Positions 13,743 through 63,658 of a DNA stretch of 64,000 bases are shown piece by piece. This DNA comes from an uncultured Cohaesibacter sp. (GTDB lineage Bacteria; Pseudomonadota; Alphaproteobacteria; Rhizobiales; Cohaesibacteraceae), in assembly GCF_963682185.1 (NCBI RefSeq), contig NZ_OY821667.1, forward strand, positions 2,740,501-2,804,500, given 5' to 3'. A model generated the notes under the pieces. It did not search any database. It saw only the letters and a list, made by a program, of their open reading frames with translations, and was not told the origin of the DNA. Position 1 is the first letter of the stretch. Every line of letters begins with the position of its first letter. Both the position numbers and the translations under genes were made by a program.

Positions 13743-13832
13743 GGAGAGGTGGCCGAGTGGTCGAAGGCGCACGCCTGGAACGCGTGTAGGCGGGTAACCG
13801 TCTCCAGGGTTCGAATCCCTGTCTCTCCGCCA
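13743..13832 (+). tRNA. tRNA-Ser (anticodon GGA)
   Basis: A 90-nt tRNA with acceptor GGAGAGG pairing with the 3' TCTCTCC, discriminator G, encoded CCA, anticodon loop CTGGAAC (anticodon GGA), a long class II variable arm, and GGTTCGAATCC in the T arm. Its 3' end is the start of a direct repeat found again at 44612, so this tRNA is an island integration site. Confidence 0.97.
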
Positions 13833-14095
13833 TTTTTCAAGCATCGAATTGGATTTTATGCAGTAAATTCAATGGCTTGGTTCGAGATATCCCGCAAGAT
13901 TCCCCAAATTTGCTACACATTTTGCTACACAAACTTATGCAAAGGTCTATGGCCCTTTCCACGATTTTCTTCAGTTCTTCCATGTTGAGTGGAGCTGACT
14001 GAACGCTCAAATCTGCGATGGATGCATTCAAACCAAGTAGCTCGGCGCTGGTCGATTTACGCGAATTGCAACGAGCGATTTTGTGCCTGCTTCAC
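13820..14095 (+). repeat. Left copy of long direct repeat, contains tRNA-Ser 3' end (attL-like)
   Basis: This segment aligns without gaps to 44612-44874, except for a 13-base tandem duplication present only here. The first 15 bases (TGTCTCTCCGCCATT) are identical in both copies and include the tRNA 3' end. A later stretch around GGCCCTTTCCACGATTTTC is also identical. TTTGCTACACA occurs twice in a row at 13909-13919 and 13921-13931, like integrase arm sites. The far end matches the start of the SHMT-like fragment that continues only in the right copy. Confidence 0.85.
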
Positions 14096-44611: not shown

Positions 44612-44874
44612 TGTCTCTCCGCCATTACCTAAACGATAAATTGAAATTTATATCGTAAATTCAATCGCTTGATGCGCACGTTCCCGCAAGCTCCCCAAAT
44701 TTTCTACACAAACCTATGCAAAGGTCTATGGCCCTTTCCACGATTTTCTTCAATTCTTTCATGTTGAGTGGAGCTGACCAAACGCTCCACCCCGTAAAGG
44801 AAGCAATCAAACCAAGTGGCTCGGTTCTGGTCGATTTGCACGAATTGCAATATCCGATTTTACGCCTGCTTCAC
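44612..44874 (+). repeat. Right copy of long direct repeat with tRNA-Ser 3' end (attR-like)
   Basis: It repeats 13820-14095, lacking one 13-base unit. The first 15 bases are the tRNA-Ser 3' end (TGTCTCTCCGCCATT) with no tRNA body before it, as expected for a displaced attachment site. It leads into the SHMT-like fragment, whose start is shared with the left copy. Confidence 0.85.
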
Positions 44875-51630: not shown

Positions 51631-51862
51631 CTGCCCTTTGGGTGATACTGCACGTTCTTATGTTTTTTAAGCTGCCGCTTCATTGAAGACGAAAGGGTCA
51701 AGCCGCTCGATTTCTGGCCATGCTGCGCTTCCTACGAACGTCAGCAATGGGAAGTCTCTTCACGGATTTGTCGTTTCGCGAATGGCCGCAAGGAGCCGCT
51801 TCTTCCATGGGCCGCAATGAAAACTAGCCAAGAATGTGCCAATCGGAGCTTTGCAGATCTAT

Positions 51863-52207
51863 CTATGAATAGACGCCTGATTGGACCGACAGCAAATAGG
51901 CAAGAACTCTGTCAGATTTGCGCTCGGCAACCAAATCAAACGCAGTTTTTCCGGCCCAACCAGGAATTGGTTGATGTTTAAACCAAAGAGCCGCGTGTTG
52001 ATCAGACCCCGTCATTTCGGCTGCTATCGTGAGAATGTGCATTAATGGCCGAACTGCTTCATTCAGTTTTCGTAAGCCGGATTGCCTATAAAATGAATGT
52101 CGATCTAAACCGGTCAACAGAGCCAATTCTGTCTGATTGATTCCAAGTCTCTTGGCGAATGCTCGTGCAGATATGATCTGATTGTTGCTATCGAAGTGCG
52201 TGGACAT
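51863..52207 (-). CDS. Xre/MbcA/ParS-type antitoxin-like protein (DUF2384 domain)
   Basis: A 114-residue protein with an N-terminal helical DNA-binding part (ISARAFAKRLGINQTELALL and following) and a C-terminal toxin-binding domain, seen in ALWFKHQPIPGWAGKTAFDLV near residues 73-93. Such antitoxins normally pair with a RES-domain toxin that degrades NAD. No RES protein is encoded next to it. It is the last gene of the minus-strand array. Confidence 0.75.
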   Translation of the reverse strand: MSTHFDSNNQIISARAFAKRLGINQTELALLTGLDRHSFYRQSGLRKLNEAVRPLMHILTIAAEMTGSDQHAALWFKHQPIPGWAGKTAFDLVAERKSDRVLAYLLSVQSGVYS

Positions 52208-52430
52208 GGTTGGGTAGTCTTTCTGCAAAGCAGGCCTTTGAAGTTCATTCGCGATAAGCCAATTCTGTGACCATCTTTCGAGCAACTCAAGCCTCTTGAC
52301 GCCCAAGGTTTGCCGAAAGCAATCATCTTGTGACAGATGGTTACCCAAATAGCTTCAGTCAGGGCAATGCTCCTCTTTCGCGGGGCTGGTTTGAGCAAAC
52401 TGCGACTTTTCACTACAGACATCGCCTCCT

Positions 52431-52988
52431 TCACCGGTCAACCAACCTGTCCATCTTGCAGTCGAAGGCTTCACTGATGTCATCCGGGATTCCGTCAGAG
52501 AAGAAGGCCTTCTGCGTTGAGGTTCGCTTTTGTGGTTTCTCGAAGAGGTAGAAGGACATGCCATCTGCTGCATATGGGTTGCTTGGTTTCAATATCTGCC
52601 CGTCTTCTAGAATTGTGCACTGGGTGAAATATTCCACCACCAGCATGCTGCAGGTTTCGGTCACGGTTGGAACGTAGTTGATGATCGGCAGCTGGTCGTA
52701 GTCTTCGTCGTCTTCGTCTTCGTCGCATTCATAGTAAAAGTAATCATTGCTGAGCCGGGTTCCTGTTGCCGTTTCAAAAGCGACAAGGAGCTGCTGGAGA
52801 CGCCGATCTTCTTCTTCCGATAGTTCTGAGCTGAAATCGTAGTAGCCTTTGATCTTGCCTCCTTCTTCTCTTGTGGTTGCGATGATGCCCGCGACTTCGT
52901 CAGGCTGAAGCTCTTTGCAATGGAGTGGGCCTTCAACGAAATTCTGAACGCAGATGGATGATCCAAAGCTGATGAAAAGGTCTTTCAT
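52431..52988 (-). CDS. Acidic hypothetical protein
   Basis: A 185-residue protein I do not recognise. It is strongly acidic, with a run of Asp/Glu (ECDEDEDDEDYD near residues 88-99), which suggests a nucleic-acid mimic or a protein that binds basic partners. The start at 52988 follows AGGAGACACTTTAAT, a good RBS. It lies between the PemK-like paralogues and the Xre/ParS-like protein on the same strand. Confidence 0.75.
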   Translation of the reverse strand: MKDLFISFGSSICVQNFVEGPLHCKELQPDEVAGIIATTREEGGKIKGYYDFSSELSEEEDRRLQQLLVAFETATGTRLSNDYFYYECDEDEDDEDYDQLPIINYVPTVTETCSMLVVEYFTQCTILEDGQILKPSNPYAADGMSFYLFEKPQKRTSTQKAFFSDGIPDDISEAFDCKMDRLVDR

Positions 52989-53249
52989 ATTAAAGTGTCT
53001 CCTGAATAAGGAAAACTGAATGGAGTGCGGCTGGCGAACGGATCGATTGGTAGAACACGGCAGGCCATTCAATGGGTGAACAATGTTGGTGCAAGCTGTT
53101 GTTGTCTCAGTCACGGCGACAGTTTGACGCCGTGACCGATGCGTGATCCTCAGGCTCGATTTCGATGAGTGTTTTGAGATGCGGAAACAATATCGGTAGA
53201 AGCGAAACTGAAGCGTCGGTGTTTCCTGTCTATGCAGGAAGGCGAATTC

Positions 53250-53918
53250 TCAACCGAGCCAGGAGCGAAGATGAGAGGGCTCATCAAGTTCCGTTGTTGC
53301 TGTTTTGGTAAGGCTGATGGATGGCAGGGTCGGCTTTTTGGGGGAGCGGTCCTTTCGGCCCTTTTCGAAATAGCGGACTGCCGCCATGTCGATATTGGCC
53401 TGAACACGAGCGCGGATGGCACTGAAACGCAATCTGTCAGGACCGATCAGACGCCCGATGACAGGGGAGGCTGATCTGCATTTCTTGAATCCGTTATGCT
53501 CGAGAGAAACGGTAATTCGGACATTGCTGTCAAAGACCGTTGGTGAGTTGAGGCCGGCTGCGGCCATGGCAATCGGATTGGTAATGTCTGTTTGAAGGGA
53601 TGAGCTGGATTTGTTCTCGAGCCTTGATCCGCAGACAAGGGTGACAAAGCGCATCCCGCCGATGTTGCGGATATCATGGATGAGACAAGGGCGTGGTTCA
53701 GGAGCGTTTTGCTTTCGTTTCTCAGCGATCGGGAAGGGGAAGAGAATGACATCGCCCCATTTGAGTTTGTCTTTCCAGTCTTGCCGGGGGTGGGCGATGT
53801 GATGATCTTGATTGACCTTGATGAGCATGGGCTTTTGCGTCCTTACGTTAGAGGCTTGTTTGGCGCCTGTCTTTTCCTCTTCCTTTGTTTTGAGGGATCG
53901 GATCGTGCGCGGCGTCAT
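53250..53918 (-). CDS. PemK/MazF-like unknown protein, paralogue B
   Basis: About 222 residues. The middle shares a pattern with the gene upstream: WGDVILFPFPI near the first third (as in PemK/MazF GDIV-F-P strands), PCLIHDI, then a central AAGL and the motif SPVIGRL toward the C-terminus. The N-terminal 35 residues (KTKEEEKTGAKQ) and the C-terminal tail (about 40 residues) are charged and differ. The start is uncertain (53918, or 53828 inside). No toxin active site can be confirmed by eye. Confidence 0.6.
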   Translation of the reverse strand: MTPRTIRSLKTKEEEKTGAKQASNVRTQKPMLIKVNQDHHIAHPRQDWKDKLKWGDVILFPFPIAEKRKQNAPEPRPCLIHDIRNIGGMRFVTLVCGSRLENKSSSSLQTDITNPIAMAAAGLNSPTVFDSNVRITVSLEHNGFKKCRSASPVIGRLIGPDRLRFSAIRARVQANIDMAAVRYFEKGRKDRSPKKPTLPSISLTKTATTELDEPSHLRSWLG

Positions 53919-54028
53919 CAAGGCTGCCGTGATCGATCTCGAATCCCTCTATTGCGCATTGTTTCCAACTCTTCCTTCTCCTGATGTCTGGCTCACCATT
54001 GGCAGCGAGCCAGAAGGTGGTCTTCGGA

Positions 54029-54565
54029 TCACCGGGCAGAGATGGCATCCCATGCAGCCTGTTGCCGCTCGAGATCATTCTCCGACATCAGAGCTTTTGG
54101 GCCTCTTTCTCCTGGAGGCGTCAACTGATGACGAGCCTCGTGAAGCAGAAGGCGATCGGCCTCAATGCGTTGAGGGCTTCGACTATATTGCATGCGATGA
54201 AGCCCCTTGTTTGGTAGCCTGCCGATCACGGGCGAGGCAATTGAAGGCAGCCTGGAATCATCATGAGGGATGAGAACCGTTCGGGTTAAATTGACCGAGA
54301 AGGTGATTGGTTGTGAAAGGCCTGCCATTTGCAGGTCCATCTTTTCGGTGATCTGGATTTCTGAGGCGTTCGATGATGTCGGATCGACATCACGACCGAT
54401 GCCCATAAGCAGCAGGGTTTCAGAATCGAATTGTGCGATTTCGATCACGACGAAGGCGTTGTGGAGGATTGGAGTTTCCGGTGGGTAGGCTGGAAACTGG
54501 ACGATATCTCCGGGTTTGAGATCCTTGAGCCAATTGTCGGGGGATGGATTGATGGCATGGGTCAT
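54029..54565 (-). CDS. PemK/MazF-like unknown protein, paralogue A
   Basis: A 178-residue protein. LKPGDIVQFPAYPP near residues 15-28 and AFVVIEI resemble the first strands of the PemK/MazF/CcdB barrel, followed by AGLSQPITF and the motif SPVIGRL near 124-130, which recurs in the gene downstream. The C-terminal 40 residues look helical. RBS AAGGAAGTC before the ATG. It is separated from the recombinase genes by a strong terminator, so it probably has its own promoter. Confidence 0.65.
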   Translation of the reverse strand: MTHAINPSPDNWLKDLKPGDIVQFPAYPPETPILHNAFVVIEIAQFDSETLLLMGIGRDVDPTSSNASEIQITEKMDLQMAGLSQPITFSVNLTRTVLIPHDDSRLPSIASPVIGRLPNKGLHRMQYSRSPQRIEADRLLLHEARHQLTPPGERGPKALMSENDLERQQAAWDAISAR

Positions 54566-54689
54566 GTTTATGACTTCCTTCTAAAAGTGAAAACAGACGC
54601 CTTTTGCTCTTCTGAAAGGTTTGAAGGTTCAGATCGGCGCGGCGACATCCCGGCTGTCGCGCCAATCAGAACTGTTTTCTTTCTAACAA

Positions 54690-54725
54690 AAAACACCCCT
54701 TTCACGTCAGGAAAGGGGTGTTTTG
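54690..54725. terminator. Strong terminator after the recombinase pair
   Basis: AAACACCCCTTTC (54691-54703) and its complement GAAAGGGGTGTTT (54711-54723) form a 13-bp stem with loop ACGTCAG. A/T tracts on both sides allow termination in either direction. Confidence 0.85.
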
Positions 54726-54764
54726 TCTCACGAGAGATGATCGGCTTGGAGATGGACAAACGAT

Positions 54765-56240
54765 CTATTTGTCGGTTTCGGTGTCTTCATCCTCGTCCGG
54801 TGATGACAAGATTTTTGCCACCAATTGGTCCATCAGGGACTGGGATTCCTTGAAGAGAGTATCCTGCAAGGCATCAGCCTGATAGGCCAGTCTGGTTTTG
54901 ACGTCACGTTGGGCACAAAGCGCCATTGCCATGGCAACGCCTTTTGCGCCACGTTTGCCAAGTTCGGTATGTGCCATGGTCCGTGCGATGTGAGCGCCGG
55001 TTCCGAAATGCTCCCGCCAGATCTTGGATGGTCGCTTTTTGACATACATTTCGCCCAAGAAGTCATGAAACACTGGGGCTTTTGCTTCGATCAGCCTCTG
55101 TCTTTCTTGATTGAGCCATCCCGTTCCGACTTCAGGGTTGACCTCGTGAAATACCAGGGCATCAAAGAATCTGTCGAGTTTTGGATGCAATGGCGCCCTG
55201 ATCGATTGGCCCGTTTTGTTGGTGGCTACATTGATTTTATATCGGCCTGTTTCGGCGTCATAGGTGATGTCTTCTCCCCACCGCAATAACCCGTCTGTTA
55301 TGCGCAGTGGTATAAAGAGCCAAAGTGCGATGACGGCTGCCTGATTGCGCAACTTGTTCTTTGTCTTTCGATGTGTGGCAGTTGTGCTGTCCTTGAGGAG
55401 TTGGCAAGCAAGTCGGTAGATATCCTTGTAAGATGGCATTCGTTCATATCGGCCGAATTTCAGGGGGCTTTCTGCTGCTGCATCACTTTCGAGTTTGTTG
55501 ATATGCTTGTTTAAGTCGGCCAGAATCTGAGGGCTGACACCCAGCTCTTTTCCAAACTGGCGTAATCGCATTGTTGCGGTTTGCAACGTACGGGCACGGC
55601 ACCTCTGATTTTGATAGGTGGCTTCTTCTGCAGACGGAGCCCGATCTTTTTTTGTCTGTTCAAGAATGCGCACACCTGCGGCATCGATGACGACCGGAAC
55701 GCCTGCTGTTTTGAGGGTCCAGACATACTCGTTGATGACATCTTGCATATTTTCCAGCAGGCTTGCTGAAAATGCTTTGCCGCCAGAAGGGCGATGGCCA
55801 TTTCGCAACTGCGCCCATATTTGCTGCCAAGGGACGGGCCATTCCGAGACAGGACAGCGATATTTGGCTGGCTTTCTCTCTGCCTTTTCTTGCGGCTTTT
55901 TATGGGCATTGTTGTATGTGAACGTCTTTTCGGTGATCGCTGCCTGCAGGGCTGGACCGACAACCGGATGACCCGGAAACAGGATGTTGAACGTCGATCG
56001 TAAGGCAATCAGGGTATTCGGCGGCTCGTGCTTTGCCGAATAATCTAAAAAGTCCTGTTTGGTTGGAGCGTTTATGCCATGGAGATGAGTGTAACGCAAA
56101 AACTTGGCCAATCGCTTTTTGTGTCCATCGTCCAACTGACCGAATGTTGGCATGGCCTCATAAGGAGCGAGCAACTCGTCATTGGATGGGGTGTTTGCTG
56201 CTTCTATGTTCAATTTGTCTTTCTTGTTACCATTATTCAT
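54765..56240 (-). CDS. Large tyrosine-recombinase-like protein, 491 aa
   Basis: A recombinase-fold protein. The C-terminal third keeps the order of catalytic boxes: Arg313 in PLRITDGL, His417 and Arg420 in GAHIARTMAH, and a candidate nucleophile Tyr453 in TRLAYQAD; the second His (LGH of typical enzymes) is replaced (LCAQ). The N-terminal 290 residues are long and basic, with a SAM-like region near 75-110. It ends acidic (DEDEDTETDK). Its ATG overlaps the upstream recombinase gene by 8 bp. It may be an active or an accessory recombinase. Confidence 0.8.
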   Translation of the reverse strand: MNNGNKKDKLNIEAANTPSNDELLAPYEAMPTFGQLDDGHKKRLAKFLRYTHLHGINAPTKQDFLDYSAKHEPPNTLIALRSTFNILFPGHPVVGPALQAAITEKTFTYNNAHKKPQEKAERKPAKYRCPVSEWPVPWQQIWAQLRNGHRPSGGKAFSASLLENMQDVINEYVWTLKTAGVPVVIDAAGVRILEQTKKDRAPSAEEATYQNQRCRARTLQTATMRLRQFGKELGVSPQILADLNKHINKLESDAAAESPLKFGRYERMPSYKDIYRLACQLLKDSTTATHRKTKNKLRNQAAVIALWLFIPLRITDGLLRWGEDITYDAETGRYKINVATNKTGQSIRAPLHPKLDRFFDALVFHEVNPEVGTGWLNQERQRLIEAKAPVFHDFLGEMYVKKRPSKIWREHFGTGAHIARTMAHTELGKRGAKGVAMAMALCAQRDVKTRLAYQADALQDTLFKESQSLMDQLVAKILSSPDEDEDTETDK

Positions 56241-58065
56241 CGATCATCTCCGCAATCAGTTCTTGGCCGACTTGCATCTGTTCCACTTCCTTGATCCATG
56301 CGTAATAGGTCAAAACCGTATTGACCGTATCGCCGAGGCGCGTCGCAATGACCACGATCTTTTCGGGATGTGCGCGAAGCAAGAGTGAGGCCTGCCCATG
56401 GCGCATTTGTTGAGGTGTCATGGGCAAGTTGAGGACCGTGCGCGTGTAAGTCGAATAACGTTCGCTAAAATAGGTCTCATTCATTGGCTTTGTGGCACTT
56501 TCCGGGGCTGGAAAGAAATACGGGTTGTTGGCCGCGTGCTGATACAAGGGCCTGATGGTTTCAAGATACCAGTCCAAGACTCCCAGATAGTCTTGGTTGC
56601 CTGGGTGTATCTCAACCTTGATGCCCTTTTTGTTTTTGACGGTGCCCGGCGGGATCCTAAGCTTGATGGGATCTTTCTTGCTCTTGGGCATCATGATATG
56701 TGCATCAGTGCCATGGAGAGTCAGGCCCATGGCATTTTCGCAGCGGATCGGTGCTCCGCCAATTTCGATGGCGCAAAAGGCCGCACAGGTGCCGATCCAG
56801 CGGTATTTCACCAGTTCCATCTTCGTCAATGCACGCCCTTGTGCACTGGCTACGGATTCCATTTCCATGGCTGCATCCCGAAAGGCAAAAGGCGAGTTCA
56901 AGAAGCGCTTTGTGAGGGGGGTGGATTCAAACAAATTTTCACAAAACTGCTTATTGGCTTCGGCCATTTCATCTTCGGCATCTTTGCCTTCAATCAGGAT
57001 GGAATTGTTTTTGAGCGCCTGGGTGAGCGCCGCAAGGGCTGTCGGGTCAGCGTCAAGGGCATGGAGGACCCGTTTGTATTTGGACAGATATTTCCGAACC
57101 GTCCGAGGTTTTAGTTTGCGGACATCATGGTCTGGCAACTGACAGCGGGCAACCATCAGATTCCGGACCTCAGTAATCACATCGCCGCGGACGAAAATAA
57201 GATCCCAACGCTGACTGATGTCAGTTTCGGGATGCGCATCGAGGTACGTGCGCGTGATGGAGTTCATCGTCGAGTTGAAGAGGGTTTGCGTTTCGGGGCT
57301 GCGATTGGCATAGGTCTTTGAAACAGGATCGAAATCCTCATCAGCCAAGACCGCATAGATCGCGTCAATGTCTTCCTGCCAATGTGGCGGGATCGGCTCT
57401 TGCTGCTGACGCAAACGGCGGGCTGAAAAGCCAATGCTGCTCAGAGGCAGATGGGGGTGAGCAAAATCATATTCGCGGAGCTTGTCAAGAAACGCCATGG
57501 CACGGCGATAGGAATCCCGTATGCGCGTTGGGCAGACAAGATACAAGCTGTTGGCGATGTCCTTGGTGATGTCCTGTGGTTGGATATCTACAGATCGCAT
57601 GAAATCAGCAAGGCTTCTTACCGCAACAAAATTGGTTTTGCGATAAGGATCAAAATCCGGGATGTCCGGTGCGTGGCAATCAAGCGCATCGAGCAAATGA
57701 TACCAACCATCTTGCTGGGCCCGTGCCTCTTCAAGGGCTTTATAGACGCCCAGGAATTCCTTGAGGGCTGCCTGGAGGCGACGGCGAAATTGTAGGTAGG
57801 CTTTTTCGGTAGTCCACCAGCTTGGATCAAAACCGTCGAGTGGGAAGGTGACCTCGATAAGATCCAAGGAGGCGGGGATGGTTGACAAGGGCTCGTTCAG
57901 AATGTCGCCAACCCGCTTGATCGAAGATACATAACGCTTCCTGCTCTCGTCGCTGAGATCTGTTCGCTTCTCGACATGAGCGAGCAGATCCTCAAATGTT
58001 TTGGGTTTGGGTTGATGCTCCTCAGATGCCGGTATTGGTGCCGGGGGGTCGAATAAGTTATTCAA
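56233..58065 (-). CDS. Very large tyrosine-recombinase-like protein, ~610 aa
   Basis: A protein of about 610 residues (TTG start preceded by AAAGG; a longer GTG start at 58140 cannot be excluded). Box I Arg is in GGAPIRCENA (about residue 441), box II in TPQQMRHGQASLLL (about 551-564) with the usual first His replaced by Gln, box III LGD instead of LGH, and the Tyr in VLTYYAWI near 587. The N-terminal half is long and holds helical DNA-binding-like segments. Overlap of 8 bp with the next gene implies the two act together. Confidence 0.8.
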   Translation of the reverse strand: MNNLFDPPAPIPASEEHQPKPKTFEDLLAHVEKRTDLSDESRKRYVSSIKRVGDILNEPLSTIPASLDLIEVTFPLDGFDPSWWTTEKAYLQFRRRLQAALKEFLGVYKALEEARAQQDGWYHLLDALDCHAPDIPDFDPYRKTNFVAVRSLADFMRSVDIQPQDITKDIANSLYLVCPTRIRDSYRRAMAFLDKLREYDFAHPHLPLSSIGFSARRLRQQQEPIPPHWQEDIDAIYAVLADEDFDPVSKTYANRSPETQTLFNSTMNSITRTYLDAHPETDISQRWDLIFVRGDVITEVRNLMVARCQLPDHDVRKLKPRTVRKYLSKYKRVLHALDADPTALAALTQALKNNSILIEGKDAEDEMAEANKQFCENLFESTPLTKRFLNSPFAFRDAAMEMESVASAQGRALTKMELVKYRWIGTCAAFCAIEIGGAPIRCENAMGLTLHGTDAHIMMPKSKKDPIKLRIPPGTVKNKKGIKVEIHPGNQDYLGVLDWYLETIRPLYQHAANNPYFFPAPESATKPMNETYFSERYSTYTRTVLNLPMTPQQMRHGQASLLLRAHPEKIVVIATRLGDTVNTVLTYYAWIKEVEQMQVGQELIAEMIDE

Positions 58066-58242
58066 TTTGCTAACCTTTCTTTGGTTTGAGTGTGGTCGTT
58101 CAAATGCACTTCCGGTCGCCAAAGTGCATGCAGGACACACACACCACTGAATTTTCCGGACCCGATAATCGGTGGGTGTATGTATCCCGGGCGTGTCTCG
58201 GTCGTCCGGTCGAAAATGCGAATTTTGCTGTGTCCGATGTAT

Positions 58243-58779
58243 TCATTGCGCATCTCCATCGATTACTTGTGGCAACGAGAAGATGCCGACAGCAGTCGTT
58301 GGTGCAGGGTCAGCAGATGGAACCTGTGATGGGGATGGCACGACACCTGATTTGGACAGGTGTCGATATTTCGGTTGGGGCTTGTTGCTCTGCCAGGCAA
58401 TCACATCAGCTCTACGCCAACGTTTCCGATTCCGCGCGTTGGGGCGCTTTCCAAACGAAAGATCGATTGGCGCGGGAAAGTCTGGACTATAATTGGGTGA
58501 GGAAGGATTGACCCAGCGATAGATGATCGATGGATCTGTCCTACCCATATCTTGGGCCACCTGACTTGCTGTCAAGAGAGGCTTTGTCAACTCTTCCCAA
58601 TGTTTTGCAGACTGGTCGGCAGCAAGTCCGAGGGCCTCAAAGACGACGGACCAGCGGGTGCCGTTGGCGCGCAACACGATGCCTGCGTCCTGTAGGACTT
58701 CTTTGAGGCTCCGTGCCGGCACACCGAAAAAGGCGATCAGGTCTTTGCGGTTGATGTAACTGTCTTTGCATTTTGTCAT
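58243..58779 (-). CDS. AlpA-like DNA-binding protein
   Basis: A 178-residue protein. A first helical domain at about residues 6-60 (INRKDLIAFFGVPARSLKEVL) may be a helix-turn-helix, and a second (LLTASQVAQDMGRTDPSIIYRWV, about 67-90) matches AlpA/MerR-like excisionase domains, with RRADVIAWQS after it. The C-terminal 40 residues are Pro/Ser-rich. It precedes the recombinase pair on the same strand, so it probably serves as directionality factor or regulator. Confidence 0.7.
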   Translation of the reverse strand: MTKCKDSYINRKDLIAFFGVPARSLKEVLQDAGIVLRANGTRWSVVFEALGLAADQSAKHWEELTKPLLTASQVAQDMGRTDPSIIYRWVNPSSPNYSPDFPAPIDLSFGKRPNARNRKRWRRADVIAWQSNKPQPKYRHLSKSGVVPSPSQVPSADPAPTTAVGIFSLPQVIDGDAQ

Positions 58780-59010
58780 ATAAAGGGAACTGGAAAAATT
58801 TTCCGAGAAACCAAAATAAAAATGCAACTTTTTAGAAATTATTTTACAAGTAATTGTATTTGTTTATGAAATTTATTGTCTGAAGTATGTGAGATGATAG
58901 CAGCAGGGGCAAACAGTTTGGCCCGGCGACAGTGAAGCAATCGCCGGGCTGGTTGTTTATGCAAGATGCGGAGGCACGGGATACATGATAAGGGTTGCCA
59001 GGCGTTGCCT

Positions 59011-59559
59011 CTAAGCCAGTGACGTTGGTTTGTTTATTACATATACACGTCGCCAACCCATCATCTCTTCTACGATTGGAATGCCGGCGTGACACCCGCG
59101 CATGAACCTGTAGTAATATTGCGCACGCAAAAAAGCCAAGAGCGGGGCGCTGCCCGGATTAAGATTTTTGCGATCAAAAAAACGACGCAGCTTTGCAAGC
59201 GTGTGATAGCCCCGACAATCTGGAAAGCCATCAGGATGTCTATTTGCTGCGGCCAACGACAGGCCGACCAAGGGCACTTTGCGTTGGCTATCTGGATTTT
59301 TCGACCTGATGCTATCCCCAATGCATATATGAGGGATTGGATCGTCAAGGACGATGTCGCAGGGGGCAAGGCCTGTGAGATCACCTGCTCTGCAGCCAGT
59401 TTCGAGCATCATCAGCAAAAAATCGCGTGAGGTGTCGTCGAGGCCATCAAAGGCATTAGGAGCAAGCCAGTCAGACTTGATCCGTGCGATATCGGAGACC
59501 AACTCAGCAAAGTTGGGTTCATTTCGGAATTGTTCGGTTTTGATGATCGATTTTATCAT
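59011..59559 (-). CDS. Truncated tyrosine recombinase / integrase-like protein
   Basis: A 182-residue protein. The box I pattern is good (LETGCRAGDLTGLAPCDI near residues 52-69, with the catalytic Arg), and KVPLVGLSLAAANRHPDGF follows as in phage integrases. The C-terminal catalytic half is missing or degraded: no H-x-x-R or nucleophilic Tyr motif can be placed. ATG at 59559 follows GGAGATTGTG. It may be a decaying integrase of the same element. Confidence 0.6.
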   Translation of the reverse strand: MIKSIIKTEQFRNEPNFAELVSDIARIKSDWLAPNAFDGLDDTSRDFLLMMLETGCRAGDLTGLAPCDIVLDDPIPHICIGDSIRSKNPDSQRKVPLVGLSLAAANRHPDGFPDCRGYHTLAKLRRFFDRKNLNPGSAPLLAFLRAQYYYRFMRGCHAGIPIVEEMMGWRRVYVINKPTSLA

Positions 59560-60296
59560 CACAATCTCCATCATTGGTTTCACAAGACAGGAGGATGCCT
59601 CTGCAAAAAGCAGCAGGCGATCGCTCCCTGAAAGCAAATAGGGCGATCAAGGACGAACGAAAAACGCAAATTGCGCCATAGTTTTAAGTAAATGTACGTA
59701 TATTGACGGTGGGATCGGCCAAGATAATTGAGGATGCTGCGTACTTTTTCTTATGGTCATCTATAGTGATGGCAAAAAAATCAATAAATTTGGCACATTC
59801 GTTTGGGCCTCATCGTAATCCGACCTATTTTCGCTGGTTAAGCTGTTTTCATCAGATCCTGACCGCTTTGTTCGTGTCCGCATCGAGCCTTTGCTCCAAT
59901 CAGGACACGGTTGGGCGGATTGATCTGTGATTTACATTGTTACAGTTTCAGTTGTTGGATGAGCGGGACGGGATCATCCATAATATCTGTTCCGCACTCC
60001 TTTACCGGAAATCGCTGAATTCTGCGGTTCTTTTCCCCATTTTCTCCTTGCGACCGAAAAAAGCACGGGTCCGTTTGGGTTTGTATCGCAATCGCCGTAG
60101 TTCCTTGATGTGGGCCGGTGTGTGATCGCTGGCCGTGATCGCAATCCCGCGATCGGAGATCGGATCCCGGCGTTATGGTACCGCAATGCTCAACAATTGA
60201 GTTCGAGAGAGTGCCAATCCATGGCAGGCATGCTCATTGCCACCCATGGATGCTGTCTAATGCTGTCCTGCAGATGCTTCGCATGGATGGTCTGAC
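59560..60296. other. Gene-free stretch between divergent element genes
   Basis: No gene is supported. It is AT-rich up to about 59700 and then of mixed composition, and should contain the promoters of the leftward integrase fragment and the rightward genes. It is also the most likely place for an origin, attachment or control region of the element. Confidence 0.45.
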
Positions 60297-60569
60297 ATGA
60301 CGTTATCCTGCGACATGGATCCCAAATGCGGATCTGCCGATCTCCATAAAGCAGCAAAAAGCCAGCCCAAAAGCGAAACGGCGGTTTATCTGGCACGCCT
60401 GTATGCCGCTCGTGACAAGGCAGCCGTGTTGATTTCAGATGGCGAAGAATGGGTATTGCCCCATTTTGAAAGGATCCTTGCTGAGATCGAAAAGCTTGAA
60501 GAAAAGCAGAAGCGACTGGATCTTGCCCTTGAAATCGCCCGCAAGGCCAAGCAACCGCGGGCAGATTGA
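60297..60569 (+). CDS. Small coiled-coil hypothetical protein
   Basis: A 90-residue protein. Residues 28-85 are strongly helical with heptads (YLARLYAARDKAAVLIS, then FERILAEIEKLEEKQKRLDLA), so a coiled coil is likely. No family recognised. RBS is weak, so the start is uncertain. It is first of two plus-strand genes. Confidence 0.5.
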   Translation: MTLSCDMDPKCGSADLHKAAKSQPKSETAVYLARLYAARDKAAVLISDGEEWVLPHFERILAEIEKLEEKQKRLDLALEIARKAKQPRAD

Positions 60570-60753
60570 TGCGCTCGACGTAATCGACACATCCTCTCTT
60601 GCAAGAAAATGCGATCACTTTTTCTGGTTCGCTGAAATCCGCCCTAAGTCCCATTCAAGGCTCTTGGACAAGGATTGTGATCTGAACCAATCGTTCCTTT
60701 GGCCTCATTGCGAAAAAACCAATGATCGGTGTGTGCCGAGGAACAGGATCAAT

Positions 60754-61707
60754 ATGAGCGATCAGAATGAGATTTTCGGGAAATACAATGATGTGTCGGT
60801 GTTGACGCGACATGTCGATGACGCACTTTTACAGCTGTCAGACACATTCGACACAGTGGAGTTTGTCTCAGCTCTTACCGCTGCAGGACAAAGAGGTGCC
60901 GATGATGAAAAAGTGCATCAACGCGTTTTGCAGCAATGCAAGCGGGACGGTAAGATCAGGGCTGGAGCCAAAAAGGGAAAGTGGCAAAAAGCCACTGGCA
61001 TCAAGACGGAAAGACCCGAGTTCCTGAAGACACTTGTCTTGGGCTTTTCCGTCGCTGTGTGTCTTTTAATCTGGGGAGCTCAGATCGCAATCAATGTGCG
61101 GTTTGCCTGGGAGGTGGCGGGCGCTGATCCGTTCTTCCAATGGACCATGGTGACAATCATGGCGGCTCTGGATCTAGGTCGCCCCTTGTTTATGGCCAAA
61201 GGCATGCATGTCCTCTCAAGGCGCCTGCGTCGTGAGGCTACGCTTTATTTCACGATTGGCTTTACGCTGGCGTCGGTGTCATTTTTGTGTTCGAGCTCGA
61301 TGTTGTCCGCGTCATTTGCGCAGGGGCAACTGATCAATATCCGGATAGATAAAAAACAGGAGGCAATCGAGAGGCTGGTGGTTGATGCAAGGGAGTTTCG
61401 CCTGAGAGCGATTGCTTTGCGGGCGGAGGCAGACGAAGAGTGTGCGCATGGAGGGTGCGGCCCCAAAGCCAGAAAGCTGCAAAAAGACGCCGAGGCGAAT
61501 GAATTACAGGCAAAAGACGCCCAAGATCAGCTCGACCAAATGTCAAAGCAGGTAGAAAGGCCTCCGGAAATGATCGCAGGTCTGGTGCATGCCTTCGAAA
61601 ATATGCATCTTTATGGTGATGATCATAAAATGCGGCTGCCCTATCTGCTGGCTTTTGTCATCGAATTGGCCGCGCTCTTCGGCCCCGGCCTGCTTTTGAG
61701 GCGATAA
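60754..61707 (+). CDS. Membrane protein with basic N-terminal domain and coiled coil
   Basis: A 317-residue unknown. Residues 1-85 form a soluble domain resembling a winged helix (FVSALTAAGQ... KVHQRVLQQCKRDGKIRAGAKKGKWQKA), then membrane segments at about 93-112, 125-145, 160-185, a long charged helical stretch at about 190-275 with two cysteines (EECAHGGCGP), and a last membrane helix at about 292-312. RBS GAGGAACAGG before the ATG. The layout suggests a sensor or a membrane anchor linked to the recombinase element. Function unknown. Confidence 0.75.
   Translation: MSDQNEIFGKYNDVSVLTRHVDDALLQLSDTFDTVEFVSALTAAGQRGADDEKVHQRVLQQCKRDGKIRAGAKKGKWQKATGIKTERPEFLKTLVLGFSVAVCLLIWGAQIAINVRFAWEVAGADPFFQWTMVTIMAALDLGRPLFMAKGMHVLSRRLRREATLYFTIGFTLASVSFLCSSSMLSASFAQGQLINIRIDKKQEAIERLVVDAREFRLRAIALRAEADEECAHGGCGPKARKLQKDAEANELQAKDAQDQLDQMSKQVERPPEMIAGLVHAFENMHLYGDDHKMRLPYLLAFVIELAALFGPGLLLRR

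Positions 61708-63658
<1,951 letters not shown>

What the first reader, a model, noticed from the sequence alone, without database searches (positions are those of the whole stretch)
53250..58779. Two giant tyrosine-recombinase-like proteins, an AlpA factor and paired PemK-like proteins in one minus-strand array
Two recombinase-fold proteins (about 610 and 491 aa, overlapping by 8 bp) follow an AlpA-like protein, then a strong terminator and two tandem paralogues with a PemK/MazF-like pattern. Recombinase pairs of this size and divergence are unlike ordinary phage integrases or the three-gene RIT sets. This may be an undescribed mobile or defence-like module.
Basis: inference. Interest (0 to 1): 0.78.

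Follow-up and report, generated by a model that had tools for sequence, protein, structure and literature searches.

The report
AlpA-plus-two-recombinase mobile-element module
Next to two small toxin-like genes sits a three-gene set, one DNA-binding protein and two large DNA-cutting recombinases, that recurs as a unit in many marine alphaproteobacteria, appears to spread between species, and probably drives a group of mobile genetic elements for which I found no description.

Summary
On the minus strand lie an AlpA/excisionase-like protein (Alp), two tyrosine recombinases (RecA 610 aa, RecB 491 aa, 8-bp overlap), a terminator and two PemK-like paralogues; 'giant' overstates it. Found by searching with RecA, the trio recurs as a unit: RecB follows in 56 of 59 loci, Alp precedes in 47 of 59, and RecA and RecB similarities correlate at r = 0.97. 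Catalytic residues are conserved, though the window's RecA has Gln for one His. Trio DNA is more similar than rpoB in 16 of 21 genome pairs; 85 of 96 pairs of trio-sharing loci share neither flank. Best reading: the recombination module of an integrative element, with AlpA-type control of a two-recombinase machine. The PemK-like genes are recurrent neighbours (16 of 59 loci), not core. Defence is not supported. GMT was tested and not met; GInt, SE and RIT differ in gene content, but their sequences were not compared. No right end, empty site, circle or structure was obtained. New variant of the multi-recombinase mobile-element kind.

The parts
58780..58817 (-). leader of alp: ATTTTGG 38 bp before the ATG, then a palindrome GGAAAATTTTTCC; edge of the DNA conserved between distant trio copies (candidate left end of the element and/or operator/promoter)
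   Evidence: [AT]TTTT[GT] at -46..-30 in 10 of 12 loci against 8 of 564 background windows
58243..58779 (-). alp: AlpA/excisionase-like DNA-binding protein (178 aa from the ATG)
56233..58065 (-). 'RecA' (not the repair protein RecA): tyrosine recombinase, 610 aa; R441, K477, Q552 (usually H), R555, Y588
54765..56240 (-). 'RecB': second, distantly paralogous tyrosine recombinase, 491 aa; R313, K342, H417, R420, Y453
54690..54724 (-). intrinsic terminator between the trio and the PemK-like genes
54029..54565 (-). PemK/MazF-like paralogue A (178 aa), lacks the RP motif; recurrent neighbour, candidate cargo
53250..53921 (-). PemK/MazF-like paralogue B (223 aa), keeps the RP motif; recurrent neighbour, candidate cargo
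51807..62549 (.). accessory island that carries this copy; most of it is 92-94 % identical in three other Cohaesibacter genomes; right border is the end of an insertion sequence remnant

Best explanation
Alp-RecA-RecB is the recombination module of an integrative mobile element of Alphaproteobacteria. Alp, an AlpA/excisionase-type protein, probably binds the palindromic leader, switches the operon on and sets the direction of recombination. RecA and RecB, two divergent but both apparently catalytic tyrosine recombinases, probably act together as a heteromer on the element's ends to excise and integrate it. The left end probably lies just upstream of alp, and cargo is mostly carried behind the recB stop codon. 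In the window the cargo is a PemK-like pair, a plausible stabiliser. Shown: gene content, linkage, co-inheritance, conserved catalytic residues, horizontal spread, and edges of conservation at alp and at recB. Inferred: activity, heteromer, roles of Alp and of the PemK-like pair, and that these edges are recombination sites.
For: Linkage found by searching with RecA alone: RecB on the same strand within 400 bp in 56 of 59 loci (1 more at a contig edge, 2 misses); Alp upstream on the same strand within 4 kb in 47 of 59 (1 edge, 6 elsewhere in the locus, 5 not found); in a named set of 38 (10 of them the same contigs as the first set) 37 plus 1 edge and 33 plus 3 edges. Pairwise similarity RecA-RecB r 0.970 (n 49), RecA-Alp 0.920 (n 34), RecB-Alp 0.927 (n 33), 0 of 2000 permutations each. 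Catalytic residues. Trio more similar than rpoB in 16 of 21 pairs; among the window and its three nearest copies 91-95 % against 81-85 %. 85 of 96 trio-sharing pairs (28 loci) share neither flank. Edges near alp and the recB stop. Six of the 96 pairs share the DNA behind recB but not before alp (four of the six involve L233), two the reverse; one pair, L149/L150, shares the trio plus about 29 kb behind it. Alp resembles phage excisionases.
Against: No right end (attR), target repeat, circular form or empty site was found. Abrupt edges could partly reflect conserved coding sequence next to fast-changing spacers, and the ATTTTGG leader could be only a promoter. The window's RecA has Gln for the motif-II His, one of 5 of 53, and the near relative L023 has no alp, so this lineage may be impaired. 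Genes upstream of alp are also shared in the window's lineage, so this copy probably moved lately as part of a larger island. In 5 of 21 pairs the trio is less similar than rpoB. Of 96 pairs, 3 share both flanks and 2 the left one. In 4 of 6 Rhodobacteraceae loci with a PemK-like gene (L003, L165, L166, L167) it lies before alp, not behind recB, which does not fit cargo only behind recB.
Confidence: 0.62

Rival explanations
1. It is a divergent alphaproteobacterial branch of the GInt/SE type: recombinase operon at the left end, cargo behind it, movement without an empty site.
For: Cargo beginning at the stop codon of the last operon gene is the layout reported for GInts (PMC5385486); post-segregational killing cargo is also reported there; some trio loci have a third RecA-like protein close by (for example L146, L154, L156, L157, L170).
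Against: Two recombinases, both with catalytic residues, instead of two plus one lacking them; small HTH gene first, not last. PMC10214605 reports no ginC-ginD or tfp-srap homologues in Alphaproteobacteria (passages).
Confidence: 0.2
2. A passive fossil: the trio is a former recombination module now carried by larger islands and plasmids, no longer able to move itself in the window.
For: Gln at the motif-II His in the window's lineage; no alp in L023; island bordered by an insertion sequence remnant; upstream genes are shared too.
Against: Both reading frames are intact, and the motif-II His is conserved in 48 of 53 RecA members.
Confidence: 0.13
3. A defence or abortive-infection module built on PemK-like effectors with recombinases.
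For: A PemK-like gene or pair follows recB in 10 of 11 Cohaesibacter loci.
Against: No PADLOC support; no PemK-like gene in the fetched stretch of 43 of 59 trio loci.
Confidence: 0.05

Closest known systems
GInt (genomic island with three integrases, ginABCD; PMC5385486, part 1 of 6 of the text and passages read)
   Same: Recombinase operon with a small putative DNA-binding gene; cargo reported to start at the stop codon of the operon's last gene; toxin-type cargo.
   Different: Two recombinases, not three; neither family lacks the catalytic residues; small gene is first and AlpA-like; host Alphaproteobacteria, where PMC10214605 reports no ginC-ginD. Sequences not compared.
SE (strand-biased circularizing integrative element, intA-tfp-intB-srap; PMC10214605, part 1 of 10 and passages read)
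   Same: Two catalytic tyrosine recombinases plus a small auxiliary gene in one set at the left end.
   Different: No Tfp-like third protein; auxiliary gene first; no proven inverted repeats or 6-bp spacer; SE reported only in Gammaproteobacteria. Sequences not compared.
GMT (Gamma-Mobile-Trio; paper not held, roles of GmtX and GmtZ recalled; model NF040693 and four loci examined, one of them under the model's cut-off)
   Same: Three-gene mobile-island module with recombinase-type proteins.
   Different: NF040693 (GmtY) is not among the matches of 53 RecA or 50 RecB at E <= 0.1; RecA and RecB models find nothing in the four GMT loci at E <= 10; order Y-Z-X with 438-533, 756-1011 and 201-255 aa (Z and X named by position); profile comparison gives 65 columns at 24 % probability for RecA-GmtY and 1 % or less for the other eight pairs.
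RIT (recombinase in trio; PMC3414803, passages read)
   Same: Overlapping recombinase genes (8 bp here; 4-8 bp there), a compact unit of a few kb, alpha- and betaproteobacterial hosts.
   Different: Two recombinases plus an AlpA-like gene instead of three recombinases. Sequences not compared.
Tn554-type transposons (PMC3414803, passages read)
   Same: Two dissimilar tyrosine recombinases plus a third protein.
   Different: Here the small gene comes first and is AlpA-like (Tn554 gene order recalled); sequences not compared.

Membership tests
tyrosine recombinase superfamily | catalytic R, K, H-x-x-R and Y in both proteins | tested here: met
   one search counts; the window's RecA has Q for H, RecB is complete; residue roles recalled
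tyrosine recombinase superfamily | sequence match to a known recombinase family | tested here: met
   RecA: 30 of 53 members match NCBIfam NF001399 at E <= 0.1; best of any recombinase model 2.9e-8. RecB mainly through RecA; 2 of 50 match Phage_int_SAM_1 and 2 of 50 XerC
AlpA/excisionase family | AlpA or HTH_17 domain | tested here: met
   family: HTH_17 19 of 35, Phage_AlpA 3 of 35; the window copy has no such Pfam match and is placed by PHROG excisionase E 9.5e-5
PemK/MazF toxins | PF02452 match | tested here: inconclusive
   4 of 24 members, best 1.6e-4; neither window copy
PemK/MazF toxins | adjacent antitoxin gene | not tested
   no antitoxin was searched for beside the pair
GMT | match to recomb_GmtY (NF040693) | tested here: not met
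   the model's weak hits in G000 lie elsewhere
GMT | gene order GmtY-GmtZ-GmtX | tested here: not met
GInt | three integrase-like proteins plus GinD in the order ABCD | tested here: not met
   two recombinases, small gene first
GInt | flanking 10-17 nt direct imperfect repeats | tested here: inconclusive
   no exact repeat of 8 bp or more near the two edges of L154/L156; right end unknown elsewhere
GInt | sequence homology to Gin proteins | not tested
   no Gin sequence was at hand
SE | intA-tfp-intB-srap with non-catalytic Tfp | tested here: not met
SE | 13-19 bp terminal inverted repeats with 6-bp spacer | tested here: inconclusive
   a 16-bp inverted repeat stands beside alp and recB in L144 and L145, similar in L148; against shuffles only L144 exceeds, by one point; L150 and L167 exceed with repeats elsewhere
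RIT | three adjacent overlapping tyrosine recombinase genes | tested here: not met
Tn554 type | homology to TnpA/TnpB/TnpC | not tested
   no Tn554 sequence was compared

The most novel reading that the evidence does not exclude
The trio by itself is a complete transposition machine, a class of tyrosine-recombinase element not yet described: an AlpA-type director plus an obligate pair of divergent recombinases acting on sites immediately outside alp and at the recB stop codon, so that the element can move as a bare unit of about 4.2-4.7 kb or pick up and exchange cargo at the recB end. It would be the alphaproteobacterial counterpart of the GInt/SE islands.
Probability: 0.3. Interest if true: 0.7.

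Novelty: new variant of a known kind. Interest (0 to 1): 0.55.

Why it matters
Islands driven by several tyrosine recombinases carry resistance, virulence or defence genes elsewhere (GInt and SE by their abstracts, GMT by a citing passage), but PMC10214605 reports no GInt or SE blocks in Alphaproteobacteria. A module whose RecA matches 42 of 394 sampled genomes of one family (E <= 1e-10, fragments included) and that Pfam and NCBIfam do not name would help delimit islands in marine bacteria. It also gives a simple two-recombinase system in which to ask why some elements need more than one tyrosine recombinase.

Tried and rejected
Rejected: GMT membership; defence system; phage origin (viral contigs: 72 pattern matches, none a relative; phage records: 5 Listeria phage records, generic integrase match over 28 % of the query). 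The repeated 84 bp at the window island's right border first looked like an element end; it is the end of an insertion sequence found in many places (IS3-like by my reading), and that IS end is not found in the window at up to 3 mismatches.

Led nowhere: right end and empty sites; one search found only one genome in the genus asked for, so it could show nothing. In one search only L144 of the loci with an inverted repeat beside both alp and recB was above its shuffles, by one point; L145 had the same repeat but was not; L150 and L167 exceeded theirs with repeats elsewhere. A shared denitrification-type gene end (named by eye) behind three trio loci looked like a common target, but the left sides differ, so it may be cargo. 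Structure prediction never ran, so no fold search was made. One search was wrong because some rpoB loci were in the other orientation; one search replaces it. Genome G1074 was left out of the rpoB comparison because no rpoB match was found. L222, identical to L221 over 17.7 kb, and incomplete or edge loci were left out. Seven of 60 RecA reference stretches, weaker or doubtful, were left out of alignment A3.
Full report
WHERE. The window lies in a 5.39-Mb single-contig genome whose genus-mates include Cohaesibacter intestini and Cohaesibacter sp. ES.047, judged from contig lengths. I use 'RecA' and 'RecB' for the two recombinases of the finding; they are not the repair proteins of those names.

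THE GENES. All five genes and the terminator are present as described. RecA has only weak single-sequence matches to Xer-type recombinases and phage integrases, and RecB has no recombinase match. Family alignments settle both. The catalytic residues stand in nearly all members, RecA relatives match tyrosine recombinase models with E down to 2.9e-8, and the RecB profile aligns to the RecA profile over 408 columns with E 3.5e-10. The motif-II His is Gln in 5 of 53 members, the window's RecA included, so this lineage may be weakened. Residue roles are recalled; the counts are from the call. Alp has two helix-turn-helix regions by eye in the alignment, and the second resembles AlpA and phage excisionases.

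LINKAGE. I searched with RecA only and then asked what lies beside it. In 59 loci (window, 8 plasmid loci, 10 other Cohaesibacter loci, and 40 stretches fetched for the 59 places listed), RecB follows on the same strand within 400 bp in 56, with 1 more at a contig edge and 2 misses (L009, L182). Alp precedes on the same strand within 4 kb in 47, with 1 at an edge, 6 elsewhere in the locus and 5 not found. Pairwise similarities of RecA, RecB and Alp correlate at 0.92-0.97, as expected if the three travel together.

DISTRIBUTION. RecA matches occur in 8 of 20 genomes of the window's family, over full length in 5 and partial or weak in 3; in 42 of 394 genomes of the family of G705, which I take as Rhodobacteraceae from the named contigs; and in 11 of 385 alphaproteobacterial genomes, the ten besides the window's own being weak. 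RecB matches occur in 3 of 398 Pseudomonadota genomes, the window's own included. Eighteen plasmid records match RecA, six over at least 80 % of its length, 16 of the 18 typed non-mobilizable. The named hosts are almost all Rhodobacteraceae-type; one contig is labelled an Alteromonadaceae metagenome bin, L223. Viral contigs and phage records gave nothing beyond a generic integrase match.

MOVEMENT. Among 21 genome pairs the trio DNA is more similar than rpoB in 16. Among the window and its three nearest copies it is 91-95 % against 81-85 %; the five exceptions are G004-G016 and the four pairs with the more distant G1041 copy. In 96 pairs of loci (from 28 loci, so not independent) that align over at least 60 % of the trio, 85 share neither flank within 1.5 kb, 6 share only the side behind recB, 2 only the side before alp, 3 both. 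Two plasmids of one Limimaricola strain (L002, L003) share the trio, 84 % identical over 4.2 kb, and some separate pieces further upstream, but not the DNA around the trio as a block. This is the pattern of a mobile unit, though conserved coding DNA beside fast-changing spacers sharpens such edges.

EDGES. In one clade conservation starts within about 25 bp of GGAACCATCTCCTGC just before alp; in L144 and L145 the same motif stands inverted at the recB stop, and L144/L145 conservation ends about 35 bp behind it. Against shuffles this repeat is at best barely above chance and it is not seen in other clades. In the window's clade the leader begins with ATTTTGG or a near match about 40 bp before the alp ATG; [AT]TTTT[GT] is found there in 10 of 12 loci against 8 of 564 background windows, and an ATTTTGG also stands at the left edge of the distant pair L154/L156. 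It may be the end of the element, a promoter, or both. Behind recB, homology stops within about 40 bp of the stop codon in most of the pairs listed that share no cargo. One pair, L149/L150, shares a further 29 kb behind the trio. In Cohaesibacter L023 the similarity to the window stops in the last codons of recB (54788), where a different PemK-like gene follows. I read this as cargo exchange behind recB.

THE WINDOW COPY. It sits in an island, about 51.8-62.5 kb, most of which is 92-94 % identical in G009, G011 and G016. The native left flank reaches about 51.63 kb and the native right flank starts at about 62.56 kb behind an insertion sequence remnant. Because genes upstream of alp are shared too, the latest move of this copy was probably as part of a larger island.

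THE PEMK-LIKE PAIR. PemK-like genes stand near the trio in 16 of 59 loci: 10 of 11 Cohaesibacter loci (the exception, L037, has only about 1 kb of sequence behind recB) and 6 loci of the nearest Rhodobacteraceae clade. In Cohaesibacter they lie behind recB; in the 6 Rhodobacteraceae loci 2 lie behind recB (L163, L164) and 4 before alp (L003, L165, L166, L167), which speaks against a strict rule of cargo behind recB. Copy B keeps the RP motif of PemK/MazF toxins and copy A does not (role of the motif recalled). Between L033 and L036 the PemK-like region is 91 % identical while the recombinases belong to different branches, so the pair changes partners. A stabilising toxin-type cargo is the simplest idea; it is untested.

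COMPARISON. GMT was tested and not met. GInt, SE and RIT differ in number and order of genes, and their sequences were not compared. PMC10214605 (part 1 and passages) states that tfp/srap and ginC-ginD were not found in Alphaproteobacteria. PMC5385486 (part 1 and passages) describes cargo starting at the stop codon of the last operon gene, the feature most like this one. PMC3414803 (passages) covers RIT and Tn554 relatives. PMC12595487 and PMC12016528 (passages) describe other islands with integrases or AlpA, not this trio. I found no description of this trio in searches of the held library, which lacks most subscription papers; the GMT paper itself was not held.

VERDICT. A real, conserved, horizontally spreading recombination module, best explained as the core of an integrative element of the multi-recombinase kind, with a new gene set. 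Activity, ends and mechanism remain to be shown.

Noticed in passing
window 13743-14095 and 44612-44874: A tRNA-Ser gene is followed by a 276-bp stretch repeated in direct orientation (78 %) at 44.6 kb, as if a 31-kb island were inserted at the tRNA; genome G010 has one such repeat about 8 kb from its counterpart of the window's right flank.
   Followed up: partly
window 62466-62549: End of an insertion sequence (IS3-like by my reading), with many copies in the genus, forms the right border of the island.
   Followed up: yes
window 59011-59637: A 208-aa piece of another tyrosine integrase lies upstream of alp and is conserved in the same island in three other genomes.
   Followed up: no
window 51863-52348: Xre/MbcA/ParS-type antitoxin gene whose toxin I did not look for; DNA matching this part of the query is in 10 of 20 family genomes, the window's own included.
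   Followed up: no
L146, L152, L154, L156, L157, L162, L170, L236 (L243 and L247 are the same contigs as L152 and L146): A further weak RecA-like recombinase match lies within a few kb of the trio, before alp or behind recB; its role is unknown.
   Followed up: no
L033, L034, L035, L037: In a second Cohaesibacter lineage alp lies behind recB on the opposite strand.
   Followed up: no
L033 13091-16169 and L036 13524-16582: PemK-like region 91 % identical although the neighbouring recombinases belong to different branches.
   Followed up: partly
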